Source: Sanderia malayensis (Eukaryota; Cnidaria; Scyphozoa; Semaeostomeae; Pelagiidae). From it: a stretch of 64,000 bases of DNA. The position numbers and the translations under genes are program-made. Where the stretch lies: the NCBI GenBank assembly GCA_013076295.1, contig RQOL01000481.1, positions 1-64,000 of the forward strand, read 5' to 3'. Below the pieces are notes generated by a model that saw nothing but the letters and a program-made list of their open reading frames with translations, was not told the origin of the DNA and made no database searches. Each line of letters opens with the position of its first letter. Within the stretch, counting starts at the first letter, position 1. Below, one piece after another: positions 15,086 through 38,200 of this stretch.

Positions 15086-15386
15086 CATACAGATATTGTT
15101 GGCAATATAGAAACTTTAAAAATCTTGTATGTGTAGAAAATGTTGTACTTTTTAACAAAGGTACGTCTCTGTTTTTCGATTATTTATTATCTGTTTTATG
15201 TTGTTCCATCATTCATTTCATTTTATTTTCTCTTGCAGCCGACGTATACATGAGATGCCTTACGATGTTTGAAGTCAGTTATACGCATGCTCATCATACT
15301 GCATTCCCACGTCTAATTGATTGCCATCTCGGTATGTATACATCGTTGAATGTTTTGTCCAATTGCGTCGGCGGTTGCTGGGCCTA

Positions 15387-15679
15387 CAATCCTGGCCAAA
15401 AATGCTGGAACGCTGCTAATATTTTCATTCCGTTCTGCAAAATTTTCTCCCCTCCCCCCGATACAATGTTGATCTTTGTTCACTGTGTCTATTTTTCAGC
15501 GGGTAATCGCTATTCACGAGTATGCTACATGCCTTACAACCAACAACCAACATTGTTTTTTGGGGGGAGGGGAGGGAGAGGTATTTGACAAGCATTTGTT
15601 GTTTGTGCTCTAAGAGGCCGCGTATTGTGTTTCAGTTAGCAATATTTTCAACCGTTCCAAGTCTTTTTGGCAAGGATTG
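15387..15679 (+). repeat. Left terminal direct repeat (293 bp), foldback
   Basis: Identical to 20019-20311 at every base I compared. The unit is a foldback: its outer about 40 bp pair imperfectly with its own other end, and ctcccctcccccc followed by acaatgttg pairs with caacattg followed by ggggggagggg. It therefore looks like a complete 293-bp MITE with CAATCC ends at each end of the larger element. Confidence 0.9.
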
Positions 15680-16175
15680 TCTCTTACTACTGAATTGAAA
15701 ATTTTTGTTTTTACTTGCAGCTACATAAGTTATATCACCAAATAACAAGCGTGGATTACATTTGTTGATAATAGATGTATTATGAATGATCATATTTAAA
15801 AAATGACGTCACTTTTGACCACACCCTGCTTTTGACGGTCATTTCCCTGTGCATGGCAAAGCCCAACACTGCATGTTTTGCTTGCATGAAATTCTGCAGT
15901 AATATGATGGATAATGGAGTTTATAAGTTTAGTATTATCATTTTCATGAAATATATTCCAACTGTCTAACAAATGGGCTTAAGCAGGAAGTTGCATGTGC
16001 GGGAGAATAGACACAAAGTAATGACGACAGTATGCGGCAAGAGATAGTTGATGCCGTTCCAGCACTCAATGCACTGTAAATATCCACACGTTGCTAACTG
16101 AGTTGACTTTACTGGCAGGGATAATAATTTCTTTAGTTTCGATGCCTCTGTAACACGAGTGGACGTATAGATAAG
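15680..16175 (+). promoter_or_regulatory. Upstream region of the Rep gene
   Basis: Non-coding stretch inside the composite element that should contain the Rep promoter. It holds tagtattatc at about 15929, close to the conserved nonanucleotide nicked by CRESS-type Rep proteins, but only a weak 6-bp stem surrounds it. No TATA box is clear. Confidence 0.3.
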
Positions 16176-17483
16176 ATGGCTTGCAATAATAATGATGAAA
16201 TTATGAGTAACGAGGAAGATTTCGAGCCAGAACAGTTAGCTGTCAAAATGAAAAGACAGGCGTACTTAGTAACTTGGAGCAGAGCAAATACAACTGAGTA
16301 CGATAAGAAAAGATTTGCAGAGGCAGTGACATCTGCATTTGCAGAAGTGACGTCATCTTTAATTAAGCATTGGTGTTGCTGTGTAGAAGAGCATCAAGAT
16401 GGCACGCCACATTATCATATGGCTGTTTTATTAGACAGGCCAACACGTTGGAGCCGTGTAAGACAGCATATTCAGCAAACCCATGCTATTACTGTAAACT
16501 TCTCTGGGCATGGCGGGTACTATAGTGCGTACAACTACGTGAAGAAGGAAGACAGGCATGTGCTTTACAGTGATTCTCACCCAGATGTAGTTGTGAAGCC
16601 AAAGACCTATGCAGCAACAAATGTGAAGGTGACCAAAAAAATGGAAAAAAAAGGAAAACGCATGGGGAAGCTAGAGGTTGCTGAACTGATTGTGAAAAAC
16701 AGCATTCACGATAGAATTCACCTTCTGCAGCATGCTAATGCACTGAGAAAAGAAGGACAACCCGCCTTGTACAAATTTTGCATTGAAAGGTCTACAAAGA
16801 CCATTGTAGAATTTATTGCAACTGTGTGGGATGCTGAAACAGCAGAACAGACCTTGCAGAGACAGAACATGCTGAGAATGGAGATTCTAACCAATGCCCT
16901 CGATAAGCCCTGCATTTGTGATAGGCAATGGCTAAAGTGTGCTACCGAAGTGTTGGAGCGGAATGGCATTGATGTCGCAGATTTTTCTAAGGCAGTAAAG
17001 GATCTTCTGCAGAAAGGTAGGGGCAAAGGGCGGAATATCTTGCTTACTGGTCCAGCAAATTGCGGGAAGACATTTTTGCTAAACCCTCTCGTAGAGGTGT
17101 TTAACGCATTTTGTAACCCAGCTGCAGGAACATTTGCATGGGTCGGGGTGGAGCAAAAAGAAGTCATATTCTTGAACGACTTCCGCTGGGAAAGAAATAT
17201 AATATCTTGGGCAGATATGCTACTGCTACTGGAAGGACAGTTAGTTCATTTTCCTGCTCCAAAGACGCACTACTCGCAAGATATCTGCTTAATCAAAGAT
17301 ACCCCAGTTTTCTGCACAAGCAAAGCACCCCTGATATATTTAAAAAATGGGACAATTGATGAGCGGGAAACCGAAATGATGGATGTGAGGTGGAAACATT
17401 TTGCATTACGTCATCAACTTCAGGTGGATGAATGCAAAGAGGTTCCTTGCTGTGCAAATTGCTTTGCGATGCTCATTGCATAA
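16176..17483 (+). CDS. Rep-like protein: HUH endonuclease plus superfamily 3 helicase (435 aa)
   Basis: Predicted rolling-circle initiator that would nick one strand and unwind the DNA. The N-terminal endonuclease domain (about 28-135) shows motif I as YLVTWS (30-35), the metal-binding HUH motif as PHYHMAV (H79, H81) and the catalytic motif YVKK with Y121 and K124. The C-terminal ATPase (about 280-400) shows Walker A GPANCGKT (292-299), a Walker B-like FLNDF (332-336) and motif C FCTSK (379-383), where the usual Asn is Lys. A Cys cluster near the C-terminus (C420, C425, C426, C429) could bind zinc. Domain order is that of CRESS-DNA and parvovirus-type Reps. No capsid gene accompanies it, so I do not call it an endogenous virus. 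The start has a good context (aagATGG) and the frame is uninterrupted. Confidence 0.85.
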   Translation: MACNNNDEIMSNEEDFEPEQLAVKMKRQAYLVTWSRANTTEYDKKRFAEAVTSAFAEVTSSLIKHWCCCVEEHQDGTPHYHMAVLLDRPTRWSRVRQHIQQTHAITVNFSGHGGYYSAYNYVKKEDRHVLYSDSHPDVVVKPKTYAATNVKVTKKMEKKGKRMGKLEVAELIVKNSIHDRIHLLQHANALRKEGQPALYKFCIERSTKTIVEFIATVWDAETAEQTLQRQNMLRMEILTNALDKPCICDRQWLKCATEVLERNGIDVADFSKAVKDLLQKGRGKGRNILLTGPANCGKTFLLNPLVEVFNAFCNPAAGTFAWVGVEQKEVIFLNDFRWERNIISWADMLLLLEGQLVHFPAPKTHYSQDICLIKDTPVFCTSKAPLIYLKNGTIDERETEMMDVRWKHFALRHQLQVDECKEVPCCANCFAMLIA

Positions 17484-18243
17484 TACGTCAACAATGTGTT
17501 GTGGTCGAAGCTTTGTTCACGCTATCCACGGTGGCCACCGTGAAACATTTTTAGTAATTTTGTGTTTGATATAATTTTCAATATATATACTCACATATTT
17601 AGATATAGCATAACATTTTCAATCGTTATAAATCACATGTGTTGTCTATTTTTTGTCTGCTCGCATTAAAACTTCACTTATGAGGGTTTTTTGTACGGTT
17701 GCCAGTAAATAAAAAGAATAGAAACGAAGATATCAAATTTCATTTAGAAATGACTGGCCACCGTATACGTTTTGCATGAATAATGGGAGATAATTGAAAA
17801 ATACTTTTTAAAGACATGCCATAAAAACAACAGATGCATAAAGATGAGAATCTTACCTCAAAATTAGTAATATATTGCTTAATTGTACTGCTAAATATCC
17901 GCTTTGTAAATGGCCGCCGTCGTGGTAACCGTGGATATCGTTGTTTCTCTTATTTGTCATGTCATAGGAAATTTCTAGAAATGAGAAATTAGGCCTTCAT
18001 GAGCACCACATTGCTTTTTGCTAATGGTTTATACACAATTGTCAGTATGTAAACATAAACTCCGATGAGATTTCAAATCCAAGCAGTTCATGAAATACCG
18101 TGCAATAATGCGCAGAGAGCATAGCAGAATACACTTGACGAAGAGAAATACAATTAGGTTAAAAATGTCACATCGCAAAATATCAACTTGAAACGACAAA
18201 ATGAGAGATAAAATAATAAATAGACAAAAGCTCTAGTATATTT
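17484..18243. promoter_or_regulatory. Spacer between the convergent genes, with iteron-like GGCCACCGT motifs
   Basis: Contains the perfect 16-bp palindrome cacggtggccaccgtg (17527-17542), a second ggccaccgt (17756-17764) and ggccgccgt (17912-17920) followed by ccgtggata (17928-17936), which is the inverse of tatccacgg at 17524-17532. Repeated short motifs and inverted repeats are typical of Rep-binding origins, so this is a candidate replication origin. An aataaa near 17708 could end the Rep transcript. Confidence 0.4.
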
Positions 18244-19350
18244 TCAGTATTTTGTTCTGTCACCCTTAGTAGCAACAATTAACTTCATACGCTGAGGCAT
18301 GTTATCTATTGTTCTCTGTATAACGTCTTTGTCAAAGTTCCATAGTGTATCCAACACTCTTCTTGAAAACTCCTCATATGATTCTCTTGTTAATTTCTTA
18401 GCCAATGCTTGGTTCTGTAATGCACGCTTAACATTATGAAAAACGTTTTCAATTGGATTGAGGTCTGGTGATCTTGCTGGTATCCTCAATAACGTTGCAC
18501 CGATCTCGTGTAATGCATCCATGGCAAGCTTACTAGTCTGACATGGCTCATTGTCCATGACGAAGAACTTTGCCATTCTGCTTTTTCTGCACTGAACACG
18601 TGCTCCAATAAATGCACGCGGAAGCTTGCTTCTAACAAAGTCTGCAAAGAACTGTCCAGTCATTTTTTCATATGGTTCCACCATAATCACGCCTGAATTG
18701 TATGATACAGCGACAAGAACATGAAATCTTCTGCCACCGGCGAGATTCTTTGAGCCACTTGTTGTGTATCTCAGACCTTCACTTCGCTTTCTGTAAATGC
18801 GTCCTTTTGGTTTTGAGGCTTCTTGAAATGGGTTATATTTGTGTATAAATGATACGCCATCTAAGTAGAACGCCACTTCTTTTGTCCAGAAACTATCCTC
18901 GTGTTGCTTTAATGCTTGCCTAGCGAACCTTTTGCGGCTGACTTTATCTTTGACAGACAACAAGCCCTTCTTTCTTGGCTGCAACTTACGATACCCGGCA
19001 TCATTAAGTATACGGACATATGTTCTGTAGCTGCCATCCGTAACACCAGCTTCATTCATTATTTCCTTTACTGTTGGACTTCGACCATCAGCACGCAATG
19101 CATGAAATGTTCGTAAAAAGTACGAGACTTGTCGCTCTGACAAAATTCTTGGCCGTCCACGCTTCTTTTTCTCATTTCCTTGCTTCTTTGTTTTTTGAGT
19201 AGAATCTATTCCTTCAGTATAGCATCGGTAAACAGATGAATGTGAAATTTTCAGAATCCTTGATACTTCTCGAAAGCTTTTACCTTGTTGAGCAACCATT
19301 AAATAGGCTAGAGCTCGTGTTTTGGAACATATCTTCTTCTTAAAGGCCAT
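18244..19350 (-). CDS. Tc1-type DD34E transposase (368 aa)
   Basis: Predicted cut-and-paste transposase that binds the terminal repeats and integrates at TA. The N-terminus has a helix-turn-helix (about 14-45, including GKSFREVSRILKISHSSVYR), then a GRPRILS hinge and a second HTH-like part. Catalytic residues fit RNase H-fold DDE enzymes: first Asp in FYLDGV, second in FVMDNEP, and Glu in PDLNPIEN, with 34 residues between the second Asp and the Glu, i.e. DD34E as in Tc1. The length suits the family and the frame is intact. It lies convergent to the Rep gene, and the TA duplication around the element fits its action. This is clearly the IS630/Tc1 superfamily; the subfamily is not resolved. 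Confidence 0.9.
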   Translation of the reverse strand: MAFKKKICSKTRALAYLMVAQQGKSFREVSRILKISHSSVYRCYTEGIDSTQKTKKQGNEKKKRGRPRILSERQVSYFLRTFHALRADGRSPTVKEIMNEAGVTDGSYRTYVRILNDAGYRKLQPRKKGLLSVKDKVSRKRFARQALKQHEDSFWTKEVAFYLDGVSFIHKYNPFQEASKPKGRIYRKRSEGLRYTTSGSKNLAGGRRFHVLVAVSYNSGVIMVEPYEKMTGQFFADFVRSKLPRAFIGARVQCRKSRMAKFFVMDNEPCQTSKLAMDALHEIGATLLRIPARSPDLNPIENVFHNVKRALQNQALAKKLTRESYEEFSRRVLDTLWNFDKDVIQRTIDNMPQRMKLIVATKGDRTKY

Positions 19351-20018
19351 TACGAAATTAGAAGTGCGTCTCTCACTGGATCTTAATATCTACTAAACCT
19401 GTGCTGTGACCCGACATTTAACAGTTATTGTACCTGTAAACAACTAGATTCGGCACTACGTCACTGATATTGTTCTTGCTATTGTTTGTCGTTCTCTAGT
19501 GACCTCGGACTGGACAATAGATAATTTTCACGCTATTTCTATAGCTGTTGAAGCATCTCAGGGGTTTTAAACTAAAAATAGCAAAAGACGATTCAATGGA
19601 TTGCTTATTACAGATGAAATTTTGAATTTGCCACAGCTGACACTTTCTATTCTCTAGAAAAATGAGCTACTAGCGACAGCCTCGATTTCATGTTATTTTA
19701 CACATTCAACTTTTCACTCATAAACATAAAGTATAGCACAGCAGGCAATTGAAAGGCGTCCGTAAACATAAATAATCACAATTTATGAGAGCCCAGAGAT
19801 GCTAAGAACATTAAAACATAATCATTATGAGAAAGTAGGGTAAAAATGACCAAAACCCATAAAAATAGACCATTTTGGCTCCAAATGACGTCATTTTCAT
19901 TAAAGATACAGGTGAAATTGCAAAAATAATTTTATATTCGTGATTCACAGGTCTAACTTCGTGAGGTTTTTAAAAAAATTACAGGCTTCAGCACGATTTG
20001 TATTCAAAGCGTGTCAGA
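19351..20018. other. Upstream of the transposase, inside the composite element
   Basis: About 670 bp of AT-rich DNA between the transposase start and the right terminal repeat. It should hold the transposase promoter (minus strand). No further gene is seen; the short open frame entering the right repeat is a by-product. Confidence 0.4.
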
Positions 20019-20311
20019 CAATCCTGGCCAAAAATGCTGGAACGCTGCTAATATTTTCATTCCGTTCTGCAAAATTTTCTCCCCTCCCCCCGATACAATG
20101 TTGATCTTTGTTCACTGTGTCTATTTTTCAGCGGGTAATCGCTATTCACGAGTATGCTACATGCCTTACAACCAACAACCAACATTGTTTTTTGGGGGGA
20201 GGGGAGGGAGAGGTATTTGACAAGCATTTGTTGTTTGTGCTCTAAGAGGCCGCGTATTGTGTTTCAGTTAGCAATATTTTCAACCGTTCCAAGTCTTTTT
20301 GGCAAGGATTG
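20019..20311 (+). repeat. Right terminal direct repeat (293 bp), foldback
   Basis: Identical to 15387-15679 and in the same orientation. Its outer end (20311) abuts the TA duplication. The inner border (gtcagacaatcc) and the inner border of the left copy (ggattgtctctt) are not TA, so the two repeats are not two independent MITE insertions. Confidence 0.9.
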
Positions 20312-21395
20312 TAGGTGTTAAATGCTACTGGGTATTTTCGGCACTTTCGTATCGGGTAGAGCATTTGCATTCTCACTTAGAATGTAGAATTGGGGCTTGG
20401 TTGGGAGATGTAGTGCTCTGGCAAAATACGGAAATTGGGGGCATAGTAGCAGCCTTACACGGGGAAGTATACTGACCCCCCTGTGGAAGAGAGGGTTTCG
20501 CCGTTTGTGGCGAAGTTTTTTCTTCCCTGGATGTTCCTTTTACAAGTTATACCTAATTCTTTTTTCATAATAAATCCATTTTTTTTAGAAATAAATTGAT
20601 TTGTGAATATATTAACAAGCTTAGAACTTATTTCTAAGCTGGTTATTATATTCATTGTTGAAGACAATGACAAAACATTACTGAAGGAATGCCGACCATT
20701 GGCAGGGGAGCTCAATGGTTGAAATTTGCCGCACAGAAGTTTTGCTGTCTTCATTCGACTCAGCTGAAACCTGCATCGTTCATACCACATCATACCTCCA
20801 TGCATCGATTGCATGTGGGAACATCAGCAGGTACGCATGCGTTTGGTAAAACTTTATTCGCTTTATTCTATATCAGATGATGTCATCTGCTTCTAACTGT
20901 TGATATTGATCATCATTGCGCCCTATCCCGGCAGGCATTTCGCATCCAATTCAAATTTCACCTCGTACCTTTTTGCTGCTTTTTCTTGTTCTTGATTCGA
21001 ATGCAATTGATGTGCGAAGAAGGAGGATTTTTCACAACATGCTTGGCATTTATCGAAATGTGGCAGCTATCCTCTGATTTTTCTCGTTTCAAAATGTGAA
21101 TTGGCAAGTTTTCCATTTTATTTTTTGGTTTTTTCTGCTTTATCCTTCGTAAATAAAAACTTGAAGCTTCGTGACATCGAACAACAAAGATGGCGATCAC
21201 CTTCCCTTACATGAATTGAATTTATTATTCTGAGATGTTATTAAAAGGCCAACCAACTACCTCTTTTGTTCAATTGTATTTCAACTTCAATTGCATTTCA
21301 ATTTTAATTGATTTAATTTTTTATAGCTATTTCATGTTGATTTTTCTGTAGATAATTAGAAGACACGAAGAGCAAACCAGATATCTTTTAACAAA

Positions 21396-32200: not shown

Positions 32201-35200
32201 GGTGGACTTTATACGGCCGCGTTTAGGTCATGTCGAATAGAATTTGAATTAAATGCGACATAAATGCGGCCGTATAAATTGAACATTTAATTAAGTGCAG
32301 CAACTTGAATTAAGTTCATCAGGATTTGCCGAACTTAATGCACAAGTGCGACACAAATGCGACGTGGCTTTATACGGCCGCATTTTGGTCGCATTTAATT
32401 CAAATTCTCCTTGAATTAAATCACTTCATGTGATATAATGATGAAATATGTCAAATTTCCACAGTCAAGCACTCTGCGTATGTGCAATCCTTTTTCGTTA
32501 CGTCACGATGATATGAGGAGTTGAATTAAATGCGGCAAACAAAACACGTATAAAGTGAATGTCGCACTTATGTCGCATTTAGGTCGAATCTAATGAATTA
32601 AATTAGATGCGACCAAAATGCGGCCGTAAAAAGTAAGCCTAAGAGCTTGTACATTTCAGGAGGCAAAGTAGCAATATTTCTAGGATACTTTTCAGTATGA
32701 CTGACAGGACCATTTTGAAACATACATTGATTGCCAATTTCACAACCGCAAAAATAACTTGCGGTTTGAAAACAGTCAAAGGACTAAACGATTGAAAGTA
32801 GCAGTTTGGAAATATCATCGACTTTAAATTACCCTGAATTGCACAAAAAATTAAGCAGCCTGCATAACATAATGTCTAGACATTTAATAACCATTCCAAA
32901 ATGTAGCAAAACACGTTGAATAGTAAAGCTCGAAAATTTCCTTGGAACAATAGACTTAGTTTTGATTGGCCAGTAAAGCTCGAAAGTTTCCTTGGAACAA
33001 TAGACTCCGTTTTCATTCGCTGGTAAAGGTCGAAACTCAGTTTTGATTGGTTACATAGCATACCGTATAACATCAGCTAGAATGTTTTCTCGAAGAACAC
33101 ATTGCCCCCTGAAATATCCACGCTTGCAGCCAATAAACAAAATGAAATGACCTATTCCCGGGGGTAGCGTATAAAACTTACCCGAGTTTTTCCAGATAGT
33201 TTTTCACTCCACTTGATTCTAGATAATACGTCACAACGCCAGAGCCGGGACTCAGACTCGTTTTGATATACGGTTTCGTAACGAGGCCGTGCTCAACAGC
33301 CTTCTTGGCAAGTAGTCCAGCTCCCAGCATGACAGATGGGTTACTGGTATTCGTGCAACTTGTTATAGCTGCTATTACGACTGCACCTGTGAGCAAAAGA
33401 AAAGATGTTGAACTGTTTCATAGTATACAATTCACCTTTATATAACCAACTTCACTGTATATAGCAAACTAAACATCTGGTCCCTTGTTGAACTGCTTTA
33501 TAGTACACAATTAACCATCATATAACGAAATACTTACCATGTGACAAAGTATATTCATTTCCTTGAAACGTCATTGGCACCTGAGTTTCCAGTTTGTCCG
33601 GTTTGATGGCAAATCCCTTGAACCCGATCTTGTTCTTCAGACATTGCTCAAAGTCCGACTTCATGTCCGAAACAGCAACTCGGTCGTGCGGACGCTTAGG
33701 CCCGGAACATGAGGAAACCACAGTTGCCAAATCTAACTCAACTACCTACGAGGACAATGAATGCTTACAAACCCTGGATAGAATGATTGGTGCATTGATA
33801 AGCAACGCAACATGACTTATCTCCAGGAGGTCAAGTAAATTAAATGTTGCATCCTCTACTTAAAAATTTTAACCATCTTTAGAGTATATACAACTTCTGA
33901 CCACCTTTCTCCTCCGCATGACCTAACCCTAACTGTAACCCTAACCCTAAGCCCAATGTATCAGCCACTACGTATAACGGCACGTCATTTACGCATCTTA
34001 GTGTGTTGGCCTTCGATGTGAGTGGAACAGCGATGCTTAACCCTAATTTATCAATTAGTCTATTGTTTATTATTTAGAAGCAACTTTACTGTATAAAATA
34101 AACTAAGCATTTAGTCTTTCCCACCTTTGTGAATCTCGGATCTTGCTCTGTATTTGTGAAATCTCTGAATAGCTTATTGGATTTAAAATATTCTTCAATC
34201 AACTTCAGCTGATCTTCATCACGACCTGAAAATAAATTGTAAAAATTGTTGACTTACATGCAAAACTATAGCAGATTAATGTAGAATGAAATGATGGAAA
34301 TGACAATAGATAAACGAAGCAATAGATAGAATAAGTAATATGTAGAAGAAGTAATAGGTAGAAGAAGTAATAGATAGAAGAAGCAATAGATAAAAGAAGT
34401 AATAGATGGAAGAAGCAATAGATAGAAGAAAAAATAGCAAAAACAGAGAGAATAGTTGATAAACCAAAGTTTTCAACTTACCAGTCTGCCTGAGATATGC
34501 AAGTGTCATGTTATCAACAGGGAAAAATCCGACCGTAGCTCCATATTCCGGACACATGTTAGAAATCGTGGCCCGGTCTGCTATTGACAATTGACCAACA
34601 CCGGGCCCAAAGAATTCGACGAACTTTCCAACCACGCCGATCTGACGCAAGTGCTGAAATGAGAAAAGCATTGCAACACCCGTCAACGACAGTGGAAATC
34701 AGAGAATGGCATAATAATGATAATTCCATAATAACACAAGGCTACATAATCTAAGCAGTTGATAGTTGATAAATGATATGATGGTAGAGAGAAGAACGGG
34801 GGTTTAACTTGAATTGTGGGCAGGAATTTAGTTGCGAAGTGGCCGTTATATTTTTATTTTCTGTTGGAAATAATATACATTTCCATCATTTATGGAACTC
34901 GTGTTGGCAGAAAAAGAGGAAATATTGTTTTTGTTCATACACCCTTATATACTGGCTTACATTCCAACTCTTAGTCAGTCGTATTTTATACACTTAAAAA
35001 GTTGTGAAAACATCCAGAGTATATCGGAGAAATTTCATTTTGAAAATTTTTTAAGGGTCTGCCTACTTTTAGGGATTGATACATCATATCTTCACAACTT
35101 CAAATGACTAGAACTTATAACACTGTATATAAACGTAACACATAACTAATTCAATATAGTAACACTGCATCAATAAATAAATAAAATAAATGACGGAGTG

Positions 35201-38200
35201 CTTATCGACGAATAGTGATAACCAACATACCTTTGTGATGGTTAATACAACGTCTGTTGAAGTGATGAATGGTCCCATTTCACCCGTGATCTTGTAGCCG
35301 ACTACTTCAGGTACTAACATGCTGATTGCTTGGCCTAACATCACTGCCTCAGCTTCAATACCACCGACACCTGCAACAAACACGATTAAGAAAACTCACT
35401 ATTTAATTATCCTCTTTTTTAAATAATGCTCTCTATTAAGCCATCCTCTTCATCAAACCATCCTCTCTGTTAAACCATCCTCTCTATTAAACCATTCTCT
35501 CTATTAAGCTATCCTCTCTATTAAACCATTCTTTCTATTAAAGCATCCTTTCTATTAAACCATCCTCTCTATTAAGCCATCCTCTCTATTAAGCCATCCT
35601 CTCTATTAAACCATCCTCTCTATTAAACCATCCTCTCTATTAAACCATCCTCTCTATTAAACCATCCTCTCTATTAAACCATCCTCTCTATTAAACCATC
35701 CTCTCTATTAAACCATCCTCTCTATTAAACCATCCTCTCTATTAAACCATCCTCTCTATTAAACCATCCTCTCTATTAAGCCATCCTCTCTATTAAACCA
35801 TCCTCTCTATTAAACCATCCTCTCTATTAAACCATCCTCTCTATTAAGCCATCCTCTCTATTAAGCCATCCTCTCTATTAAACCATCCTCTCTATTAAGC
35901 CATCCTCTCTATTAAACCATCCTCTCTATTAAACCATCCTCTCTTTTAAACCATCCTCTCTATTAAACCATCCTCTCTATTAAACCATCCTCTCTATCAA
36001 ACCATCCTCTCTATTAAACCATCCTCTCTATTAAACAATCCTCTCTATTAAACCATTCTCTCTATTAAACCATCTTCTCCATAAGACTATCCTCTCTATT
36101 AAACCATCCTCTCTATTAAACCACCCTCTCTATTAAACCATCCTCTCTATTAAACCACCCTCTCTATTAAACCATCCTCTCTATTAAACCATTCTCTCTA
36201 TTAAGCCATCCTCTCTATTAAACCATTCTTTCTGTTAAACCATCCTCTCTATTAAACCATCCCCTCTATTAAGCCATCCTCTCTATTAAACCACCCTCTC
36301 TATTAAACCATCTTCTCTATTAAACCATCTTCTCCATAAGACTATCCTCTCTATTAAACCACCCTCTCTATTAAACCATCTTCTCCATAAGACTATCCTC
36401 TCTATTAAACCATCCTCTCTATTAAACCATCTTCTCCATAAGACTATCCTCTCTATTAAACCATCCTCTCTATTAAACCATCCTCTCTATTAAACCACCC
36501 TCTCTATTAAACCATCCTCTCTATTAAACCATCCTCTCTATTAAACCACCCTCTCTATTAAACCACCCTCTCTATTAAACCATCCTCTCTATTAAACCAT
36601 CCTCATCAAGCCATCTTCTCTATTAAACCATTCTCTCTATTAAACCATCCTCTCTATTAAACCATTCTTTCTGTTAAACCATCCTCTCTATTAAACCATC
36701 CCCTCTATTAAGCCATCCTCTCTATTAAACCATCCTCTTCGTCAAACTATCCTCTCTAACCACCCTTTTTTTAATCACCTAATTAATACAAACAAGAAAC
36801 AATCAAAATATTTTCTCACCCCAGCCGAGAACCCCAAGTCCATTGATCATTGTCGTATGCGAATCTGTCCCAACTAGACTGTCCGGGTACAACACTGAAT
36901 CTGCATTGAACACAACTCTCGCCAGATATTCTAGGTTCACCTGTGACAGACAAAATCAACATTACACTTCATTTGGACTCCCTATGGCATAGCAATAGGA
37001 ATACAGTCACACATAAACAAAAACAACGGCAACAGCACAATTCCCAACTTGTTATTGTTAACGGCAACAAAATTTTCCCTCGTAATTGTTATTGCTCCAT
37101 CGCTATTCCTTAATTTCATCATCCCTCAGTATTCTATTCTTATAAAAATTGTAAAAAGTGTGTATTATTCAATTGAAGATCAACTGTAAACACAATAAAA
37201 TAATAATAATAATAATAAAATGATATTGGAGGACTTGTAGAGTTATGAAAATTAACAATTTATTTCTGTGTAATTTCATACCCTCGTCCTTTCCAAGCCC
37301 TCCACCTTCTTTCCTCGAAAAGAAGTAACACAAATAGGACGGATTGAAAAATGTCTTCAATCCATACAAAACTACAAGCTTTAACAATGGAGAGTGCCAA
37401 ATTTTAATTCGATTTTGGTAGCTTTTAAGCTTTATGAATCGTTAGCTTGCTTGTATTTAATGAATCCATTTTTAACATTGATTAGAAGTGTTAGAGTGCT
37501 TGGAAAGTTAAAATGTGATGGTCTTATATCTTAAAATTCACGTGGAATCTCAATATAACCGACCCCTTTTATGTAGCAAGTTTCCCTGGAGTGATCAAAC
37601 TAAACATCTGACCCCTTGTTATAGTGCTTCATTGTATACAATTTACCCTCATATAACAAACTTCCTGTATATAGCAAACCAAACATTTGGTCTCTTGTTT
37701 GAACTGCTTCATAGTTATAAACAATAAAAGATGTAACTAACTCCTGGTATCACTTTAGTTCCCTTTGGGGTTGACAATTATATTCAGATTCCAGTGTGCA
37801 TAATCAAAACTAAAAAACCTTTAAAGTGCCCCTACGGCTTTTTTTTTTATTAGCTAAAAGTATAGAATCGAATGCGCTGATTCTGATACCGTTTATATTT
37901 TTTTGATCTGATGAGTAGATGTTGAGTTACGAGAGATTGCGTTCACACTTTCGTGTCTCACTTTTAGGACTGGGTCGATCCCACTATGACATCATAGTGG
38001 GAACCCTGTAGTCAGTGGCGGCGGGCGTAGGCCTACATTGAGTATAATAGATAATGTTGTTTGCGCTTTGTCTTGTCTCGTTATGTGTATTCTGTATTCG
38101 TGGGTATTTGTGCAATTTTGGTGATCAGAATTGAATAGAAAGTTTCCATAAATTAAACATTCTTAGTCGGATAGTAGTTCATGACAGTAGGGATTGCAGT

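What the first reader, a model, noticed from the sequence alone, without database searches (positions are those of the whole stretch)
15387..20311. Mobile element pairing a virus-like Rep (HUH + SF3 helicase) with a Tc1-type DD34E transposase
Seen: one 4,925-bp unit with TA on both sides, an intact Rep-like frame (HUH H79/H81, Y121, Walker A GPANCGKT) and an intact DD34E transposase in convergent orientation. Known: Rep proteins start rolling-circle replication, whereas Tc1 enzymes cut and paste double-stranded DNA at TA. Inference: the element could amplify by Rep and integrate by the transposase. I know of no well-described transposon family with this gene pair.
Basis: partly seen in the sequence, partly recalled or inferred. 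Interest (0 to 1): 0.95.

Follow-up and report, generated by a model that had tools for sequence, protein, structure and literature searches.

The report
Jumping gene carrying a viral-type replicator
This is one young copy of an old family of animal jumping genes that carry both a cut-and-paste enzyme and a virus-like DNA-copying enzyme, with what looks like a copying start-site inside the repeats at both ends.

Summary
Window 15387-20311 is one precise insertion: another contig has the empty TA site in 1,301 bp of otherwise identical DNA. Its ends are two identical 293-bp direct repeats (LDRs). Each LDR has its own inverted CAATCC-type ends and a long C/G-rich hairpin. The inside (I, 4,339 bp) encodes an HUH+SF3 Rep and a DD34E transposase. 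Four deeply diverged families in this genome (Reps 41-48% identical) share the plan LDR-I-LDR, the inner borders AGA|LDR|TCT and the hairpin. The hairpin core occurs 491 times, against 5 for the reversed pattern. Rep and transposase trees agree, so the pairing is old, not accidental. Solo LDRs, arrays, and I-I joints with Tc1-like scars occur. Most likely mechanism (inferred): the LDRs are directly repeated Rep origins from which an LDR-I circle is released and amplified; the transposase inserts LDR-bounded pieces at TA. Nearest architectural parallel: KolobokP, which has another transposase and another nuclease. No paper with this combination was found.

The parts
15385..15386 (.). target TA, left copy
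   Evidence: empty site CCTAGG on C835, one TA
15387..15679 (+). left LDR, 293 bp, bounded by inverted CAATCCTGGCCAAAAA / TTTTTGGCAAGGATTG
   Evidence: direct repeat identical to the right LDR and inverted ends; haplotype same as right LDR
15447..15574 (.). hairpin in the left LDR (C-rich and G-rich arms around CAATGTTG..CAACATTG), candidate Rep origin
   Evidence: inverted repeat, fold, same core in families B, C, D and 491 sites in the genome
15680..20018 (+). internal part I, 4,339 bp; begins TCTCTT, ends GTCAGA
   Evidence: junctions at other copies
16176..17480 (+). Rep, HUH endonuclease + SF3 helicase, 435 aa (stop 17481-17483)
   Evidence: frame; invariant H79, H81, Y121; AF2 model and fold matches to TYLCV Rep and AAV2 Rep40
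18247..19350 (-). DD34E Tc1-type transposase, 368 aa (stop 18244-18246)
   Evidence: frame; Pfam DDE_3 4.7e-16; D164, D266, E301; Sleeping Beauty 3.4e-19
20019..20311 (+). right LDR, 293 bp
20079..20206 (.). hairpin in the right LDR
20312..20313 (.). target TA, right copy

Best explanation
A composite-like Tc1-type DNA transposon with its own replication module, TA-LDR-I-LDR-TA. I encodes Rep and a DD34E transposase. Each LDR is a mini-element: inverted transposase ends around a hairpin that is probably Rep's origin. Proposed cycle: Rep starts at the origin in one LDR, copies through I and stops at the origin of the second LDR, releasing a circle with one LDR and one I while the donor stays. 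Rolling-circle copying makes concatemers. The transposase cuts at the ends of any two LDRs, or of one, and inserts LDR, LDR-I-LDR or longer arrays at TA, often in CTAG. It also excises single LDRs, which leaves the short scars at I-I joints. In the circle of families A, B and C the two genes read away from the LDR, as Rep and capsid genes do in ambisense circular ssDNA viruses (recalled), with the transposase in the capsid's place. Shown here: anatomy, unit insertion at TA, four families with one plan, co-inheritance, LDR scars, LDR concordance. Inferred: that the hairpin is the origin, the circle, the rolling-circle step.
For: Unit insertion with TA duplication, empty site known. LDR-I-LDR with inner borders AGA|LDR|TCT in families A, B, C and D. 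Hairpin core at 184 and 307 sites against 2 and 3 for the reversed pattern. Both LDRs of an element carry the same variants in 7 pairs: 1 disagreement, mean 11.9 with swapped partners, 48 of 5,040 permutations as low, as expected if both come from one LDR of a circle. I-I joints carry TG or G (5 of 7), the remainder that Tc1-type excision of an LDR would leave; two more are small deletions. Outer flanks TA in 13 of 14 (left) and 10 of 11 (right) chromosome-facing family-A LDR ends. Rep model has a CRESS-type endonuclease fold and a parvovirus-type helicase fold. Ancient pairing.
Against: No circle or nicking was seen. Gene conversion or unequal crossover could also make the LDRs agree and make arrays, as proposed for KolobokP (PMC9587614). 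The middle LDR of the C774 array lacks a variant that both its outer LDRs have, and the middle LDR of C303, the same insertion, has one more, so LDRs inside arrays are not fully concordant. The concordance permutation ignores shared ancestry of copies. The hairpin might serve the transposase. Of 50 listed hairpin sites only 12 are within 5 kb of a listed gene: most are solo LDRs or lie by genes not in my lists. One family-C copy (C866) has CA, not TA, on both sides.
Confidence: 0.6

Rival explanations
1. KolobokP-like: the transposase alone moves the element; Rep only nicks LDR hairpins and so provokes recombination between LDRs (unequal crossover, gene conversion), which makes arrays, solo LDRs and LDR concordance. 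No rolling-circle amplification.
For: KolobokP shows solo LTDRs, multimers and INT-INT joints without a Rep (PMC9587614, abstract, section 15, passages). Middle LDRs of C774 and C303 differ from their neighbours.
Against: The protein kept for long is a complete HUH + SF3 helicase with invariant active-site residues; a nicking role alone would not need the helicase. The hairpin is kept in hundreds of sites.
Confidence: 0.25
2. The hairpin and Rep serve transposition itself, for example Rep opens or exposes the LDR ends for the transposase, and there is no separate replicon stage.
For: The hairpin lies in the middle of the transposase-bounded LDR.
Against: Tc1 transposases need no helper (general knowledge). 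The two-direct-origin layout would be unexplained.
Confidence: 0.09
3. A defective integrated ssDNA virus that captured a transposase and has lost its capsid gene recently.
For: Rep fold like AAV and CRESS Reps; ambisense layout of the circle.
Against: Four families share the capsid-less plan; no other frame above 175 aa in I; no relatives in IMG/VR by the searches made.
Confidence: 0.05
4. Accidental pairing: Rep happened to insert into, or lie beside, a plain Tc1 element.
For: Hits with only one gene exist: 27 of 87 and 48 of 108.
Against: Trees agree; 60 of 60 downstream pairs convergent; four families with both genes between LDRs.
Confidence: 0.01

Closest known systems
KolobokP (Kojima and Bao 2022, PMC9587614; abstract, section 15 and passages read)
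   Same: LTDR-INT-LTDR; LTDRs with their own short inverted ends; solo LTDRs, multimers, INT-INT joints explained by LTDR excision; a second nuclease gene beside the DDE transposase.
   Different: Kolobok transposase and His-Me homing endonuclease there; Tc1-type DD34E transposase and HUH-SF3 Rep here. LTDRs there about 450 or 660 bp, here 254-293. Rolling-circle and replication-origin terms do not occur in that paper.
Geminivirus-like transposon of the truffle Tuber melanosporum (Liu et al. 2011, PMC3198968; section 8 and passages read)
   Same: Rep-like frame together with transposase frames in one eukaryotic repeat.
   Different: Geminivirus-like Rep, two transposase frames (one interrupted, one truncated), 37-bp inverted repeats, no obvious TSD; no direct repeats or hairpin mentioned in what I read.
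IS630-Tc1-mariner elements
   Same: DD34E transposase, TA duplication, short footprints at excision sites.
   Different: Usual members have one gene between two simple inverted repeats (general knowledge); here the ends are ~290-bp direct repeats, each an LDR with inverted ends, and a second gene, Rep.
Parvovirus-like repeats DENSOV_HM and PIVE (named in PMC3198968)
   Same: Parvovirus- or papillomavirus-like helicase gene in repeats of invertebrate genomes.
   Different: No transposase mentioned there; sequences not compared here.
Helitrons
   Same: Eukaryotic transposons with an HUH nuclease and a helicase.
   Different: SF1 helicase in the same protein, insertion between A and T without duplication, no DDE transposase (recalled).

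Membership tests
IS630-Tc1-mariner | DD34E transposase | tested here: met
   D164, D266, E301 invariant in 18; Pfam DDE_3; Sleeping Beauty, Mos1, Tc3 by profile
IS630-Tc1-mariner | TA target duplication | tested here: met
   window element; 13 of 14 left and 10 of 11 right family-A flanks; one family-C copy has CA
IS630-Tc1-mariner | element bounded by simple terminal inverted repeats, transposase the only gene | tested here: not met
   ends are direct repeats that each carry inverted ends; Rep present
KolobokP | LTDR-INT-LTDR with solo LTDRs and multimers | tested here: met
KolobokP | Kolobok-type transposase | tested here: not met
   Tc1-type by Pfam and PDB profile
KolobokP | His-Me finger nuclease gene | tested here: not met
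   the only other long frame in I is Rep
CRESS-DNA virus / parvovirus | HUH endonuclease + SF3 helicase Rep | tested here: met
CRESS-DNA virus / parvovirus | capsid gene | tested here: not met
   no other frame above 175 aa in I; shorter frames not searched
Rolling-circle replicon | Rep nicks an origin; circular intermediate | not testable with these tools
   candidate origin hairpin only
Helitron | A|T insertion without duplication, SF1 helicase | tested here: not met
   TA duplication; SF3-type fold
Truffle Rep transposon (Liu 2011) | 37-bp inverted repeats, no TSD, geminivirus-like Rep | tested here: not met
   direct repeats and TA duplication here; sequences of that element not compared

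The most novel reading that the evidence does not exclude
A separate class of eukaryotic mobile element: a capsid-less rolling-circle replicon that lives in chromosomes, with directly repeated Rep origins as its terminal repeats (so that Rep releases and amplifies it as from a partial dimer) and a Tc1-type transposase as its integrase. It would copy itself out by Rep and go in by a cut-and-paste enzyme, a bridge between ssDNA viruses or plasmids and Tc1 elements.
Probability: 0.52. Interest if true: 0.95.

Novelty: new variant of a known kind. Interest (0 to 1): 0.87.

Why it matters
Cut-and-paste elements have no copying step of their own. An element that owns both a replication initiator with an origin and a DDE transposase would give Tc1-type elements a direct way to raise their copy number, and would explain direct-repeat ends, arrays and solo repeats in one scheme. 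It would be a standing example of ssDNA-virus replication fused to transposition. It also shows the KolobokP plan arising with another transposase and another nuclease, which makes the role of the nuclease in such elements testable by comparison.

Tried and rejected
Accidental nesting: rejected. Relatives outside eukaryotes: none found in IMG/VR with the Rep, the Rep profile and the transposase profile, in GTDB genomes with the Rep profile or in phages with the Rep; these scans start from short peptide patterns, except. PHROGs: 1 of 22 Reps, at E 0.01. PDB by sequence: no match for the Rep profile. The alignment of the four hairpins misplaced the right arm of D, so arms were compared by anchoring on the core. 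The motif TGACGTCA near the LDRs of A and B was dropped: it is absent from the C stretches and occurs 9 times in the window outside the element. I first took I-I joints for circle joints; LDR excision scars explain them more simply.

Contig-length matching (119 lengths from each list of 120) gave 8 shared lengths. Dropped: 1771 and 2691 (too short for both genes), 3742 and 4631 (the two proteins have different sources). With 4631 kept, r falls to 0.39 and 447 of 20,000 permutations are as good; without it r is 0.83.

Host species not identified: the COX1 search did not complete, and a search for the EukProt gene-name word found no paper. Literature: eight searches on the subject showed no paper on a Rep + Tc1 element; only open papers are held and Repbase could not be searched, so an entry there cannot be excluded. 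Read: PMC3198968 section 8 and passages; PMC9587614 abstract, section 15 and passages; PMC6668415 passages; all others search listings only.
Full report
OBSERVATION. The element is a real, young insertion: contig C835 carries the same DNA without it, 624 + 679 bp at 100% identity, the two parts overlapping by TA. C835 is probably the other haplotype, or else a near-identical duplicate.

ANATOMY. The element is LDR-I-LDR. The LDRs (15387-15679, 20019-20311) are identical. Each begins CAATCCTGGCC and ends GGCAAGGATTG. Towards I the borders read GGATTG|TCT and AGA|CAATCC; towards the chromosome TA|CAATCC and GGATTG|TA. Among 28 LDR contexts of family A, 14 left ends face chromosome (13 end in TA, 12 in CTA) and 11 right ends do (10 begin with TA, 8 with TAG); two further left contexts are LDR-LDR joints. 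They are not all independent: C303 and C774 share a right flank. Inside each LDR is a hairpin with C-rich and G-rich arms and the core CAATGTTG..CAACATTG. Apart from Rep and transposase, I has no frame above 175 aa.

OTHER COPIES IN THIS GENOME (184 Mb, unnamed). The LDR has 42 matches (40 of 80 candidates scored, a lower bound). Forms seen: solo with TA on both sides (C45, L028); LDR-I-LDR (C422, C612, C692); (LDR-I)2-LDR (C303 and C774, one insertion on two contigs); LDR-LDR with the joint GGATTAATCC (C170, C464); several I without LDR between them (C829: four I between two LDRs). Seven I-I joints were read in family A: TG three times, G twice, two small deletions; three of the different ones lie in the single C829 array. 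TG is what Tc1-type excision of an LDR would leave. Two I ends without an outer LDR read AGATG|TAG and AGA|TAG. So LDRs are, most likely, excised as units.

FOUR FAMILIES, ONE PLAN. Searches of the same genome with the transposase (112 matches) and Rep (120 matches) gave further families. Among A, B, C and D the Reps are 41-48% and the transposases 40-54% identical. B (C754, LDR 278 bp), C (C466, 254 bp) and D (C628, 263 bp) have LDRs with CAAT..ATTG ends, the borders AGA and TCT towards I, and the same hairpin core. In A, B and C the genes converge; in D both read one way, transposase first. In family B, C655 has a tandem without the LDR, with the scar ACCA|TCTGG. Of 87 Rep hits compared (of 120 rows), 60 have a transposase within 3 kb downstream, all convergent, and 27 do not; of 108 transposase hits (of 112 rows) 48 stay unpaired.

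THE HAIRPIN. CAATGTTG-N40-70-CAACATTG occurs 184 times and the N71-101 form 307 times, against 2 and 3 for the reversed pattern, which is an inverted repeat too. The loops fall into several types. In C256 and C98 the hairpins stand at about the array period. Of 50 sites taken from the capped list, 12 lie within 5 kb of a gene of my lists (all 87 Reps, 27 of 108 transposases), a zone of 0.5% of the genome. DNA folding z-scores of whole LDRs, 60 shuffles each: A -4.9, B -7.6, C -9.1, D -2.1, so D is weak.

CONCORDANCE. Family A has at least three LDR haplotypes. In seven pairs from one element or array, the two LDRs carry the same substitutions (1 disagreement in all; mean 11.9 with swapped partners; 48 of 5,040 permutations as low). 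The permutation ignores shared ancestry, but each derived haplotype still had to reach both LDRs. This is the LTR-like sign of a one-LDR template; gene conversion would also do it. Against full concordance: the middle LDR of C774 lacks a variant of its two outer LDRs, and the middle LDR of C303 carries one that the right LDR lacks.

OTHER SPECIES. 514 Rep and 840 transposase homologs at E <= 1e-3, the best 120 of each listed; the few names include Acropora millepora (Rep) and Dendronephthya gigantea (transposase). Five contig lengths above 4.3 kb occur in both lists (mean 0.08 at shifted lengths, maximum 2); for four of them both proteins come from the same source. For these four and the four families here, distance matrices agree (r 0.83, 2 of 40,320 permutations as good) and 4 of 5 splits are shared (4 of 20,000 relabelled trees reach 4). 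This is indirect: no DNA of other species was read.

MECHANISM. Two directly repeated origins around a genome are the arrangement from which a rolling-circle initiator releases unit circles (known for partial dimers of circular ssDNA viruses; recalled). This would give concordance, arrays and the kept hairpin. Transposase cuts at any two LDR ends give n = 0, 1, 2 at TA, and LDR excision gives the scars. The transposase steps rest on sequence; the Rep steps are inferred. KolobokP shows the same forms without a Rep, so recombination alone stays a serious rival.

NOVELTY. Each half has a precedent: KolobokP for the architecture, the truffle element for Rep with transposase. The combination, its conservation over four families and the hairpin in the repeats were not found in eight literature searches. 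I file it as a new variant (composite-like DNA transposon with a replication module) and keep the bolder reading in the section on the most novel reading.

Noticed in passing
L006/L008 (C170:82000-82584), L020/L022 (C464:3294058-3294642): Two LDRs abut with the joint GGATTAATCC (one base lost from each end); in C464 an I follows. Possibly a joint of excised LDR ends.
   Followed up: partly
G000 C303:1498647-1508203 and C774:2565-12150: The same three-LDR array with the same right flank on two contigs, so the assembly holds both haplotypes of some regions.
   Followed up: partly
L065/L066 (C866): A family-C copy with CA instead of TA on both sides of LDR-I-LDR: decayed, or another target.
   Followed up: no
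L062:4782-6214 and L063:1564-2583: Family B carries tandem repeats of about 355 bp in I beside the LDR, some of them resembling part of the LDR start.
   Followed up: no
C379, C381, C401, C303:3473147-3511120: Further loop types of the hairpin, spaced 3.9-4.0 kb in C381, C401 and part of C303 and 6.5 kb in C379: probably more families.
   Followed up: no
window, e.g. 8828, 8858, 14860, 14890: The palindrome TGACGTCA occurs 12 times in the window, 9 of them outside the element, well above one per 65 kb.
   Followed up: no
window 35001-37000: Strong GC skew of -0.68, a C-rich tract of unknown nature.
   Followed up: no
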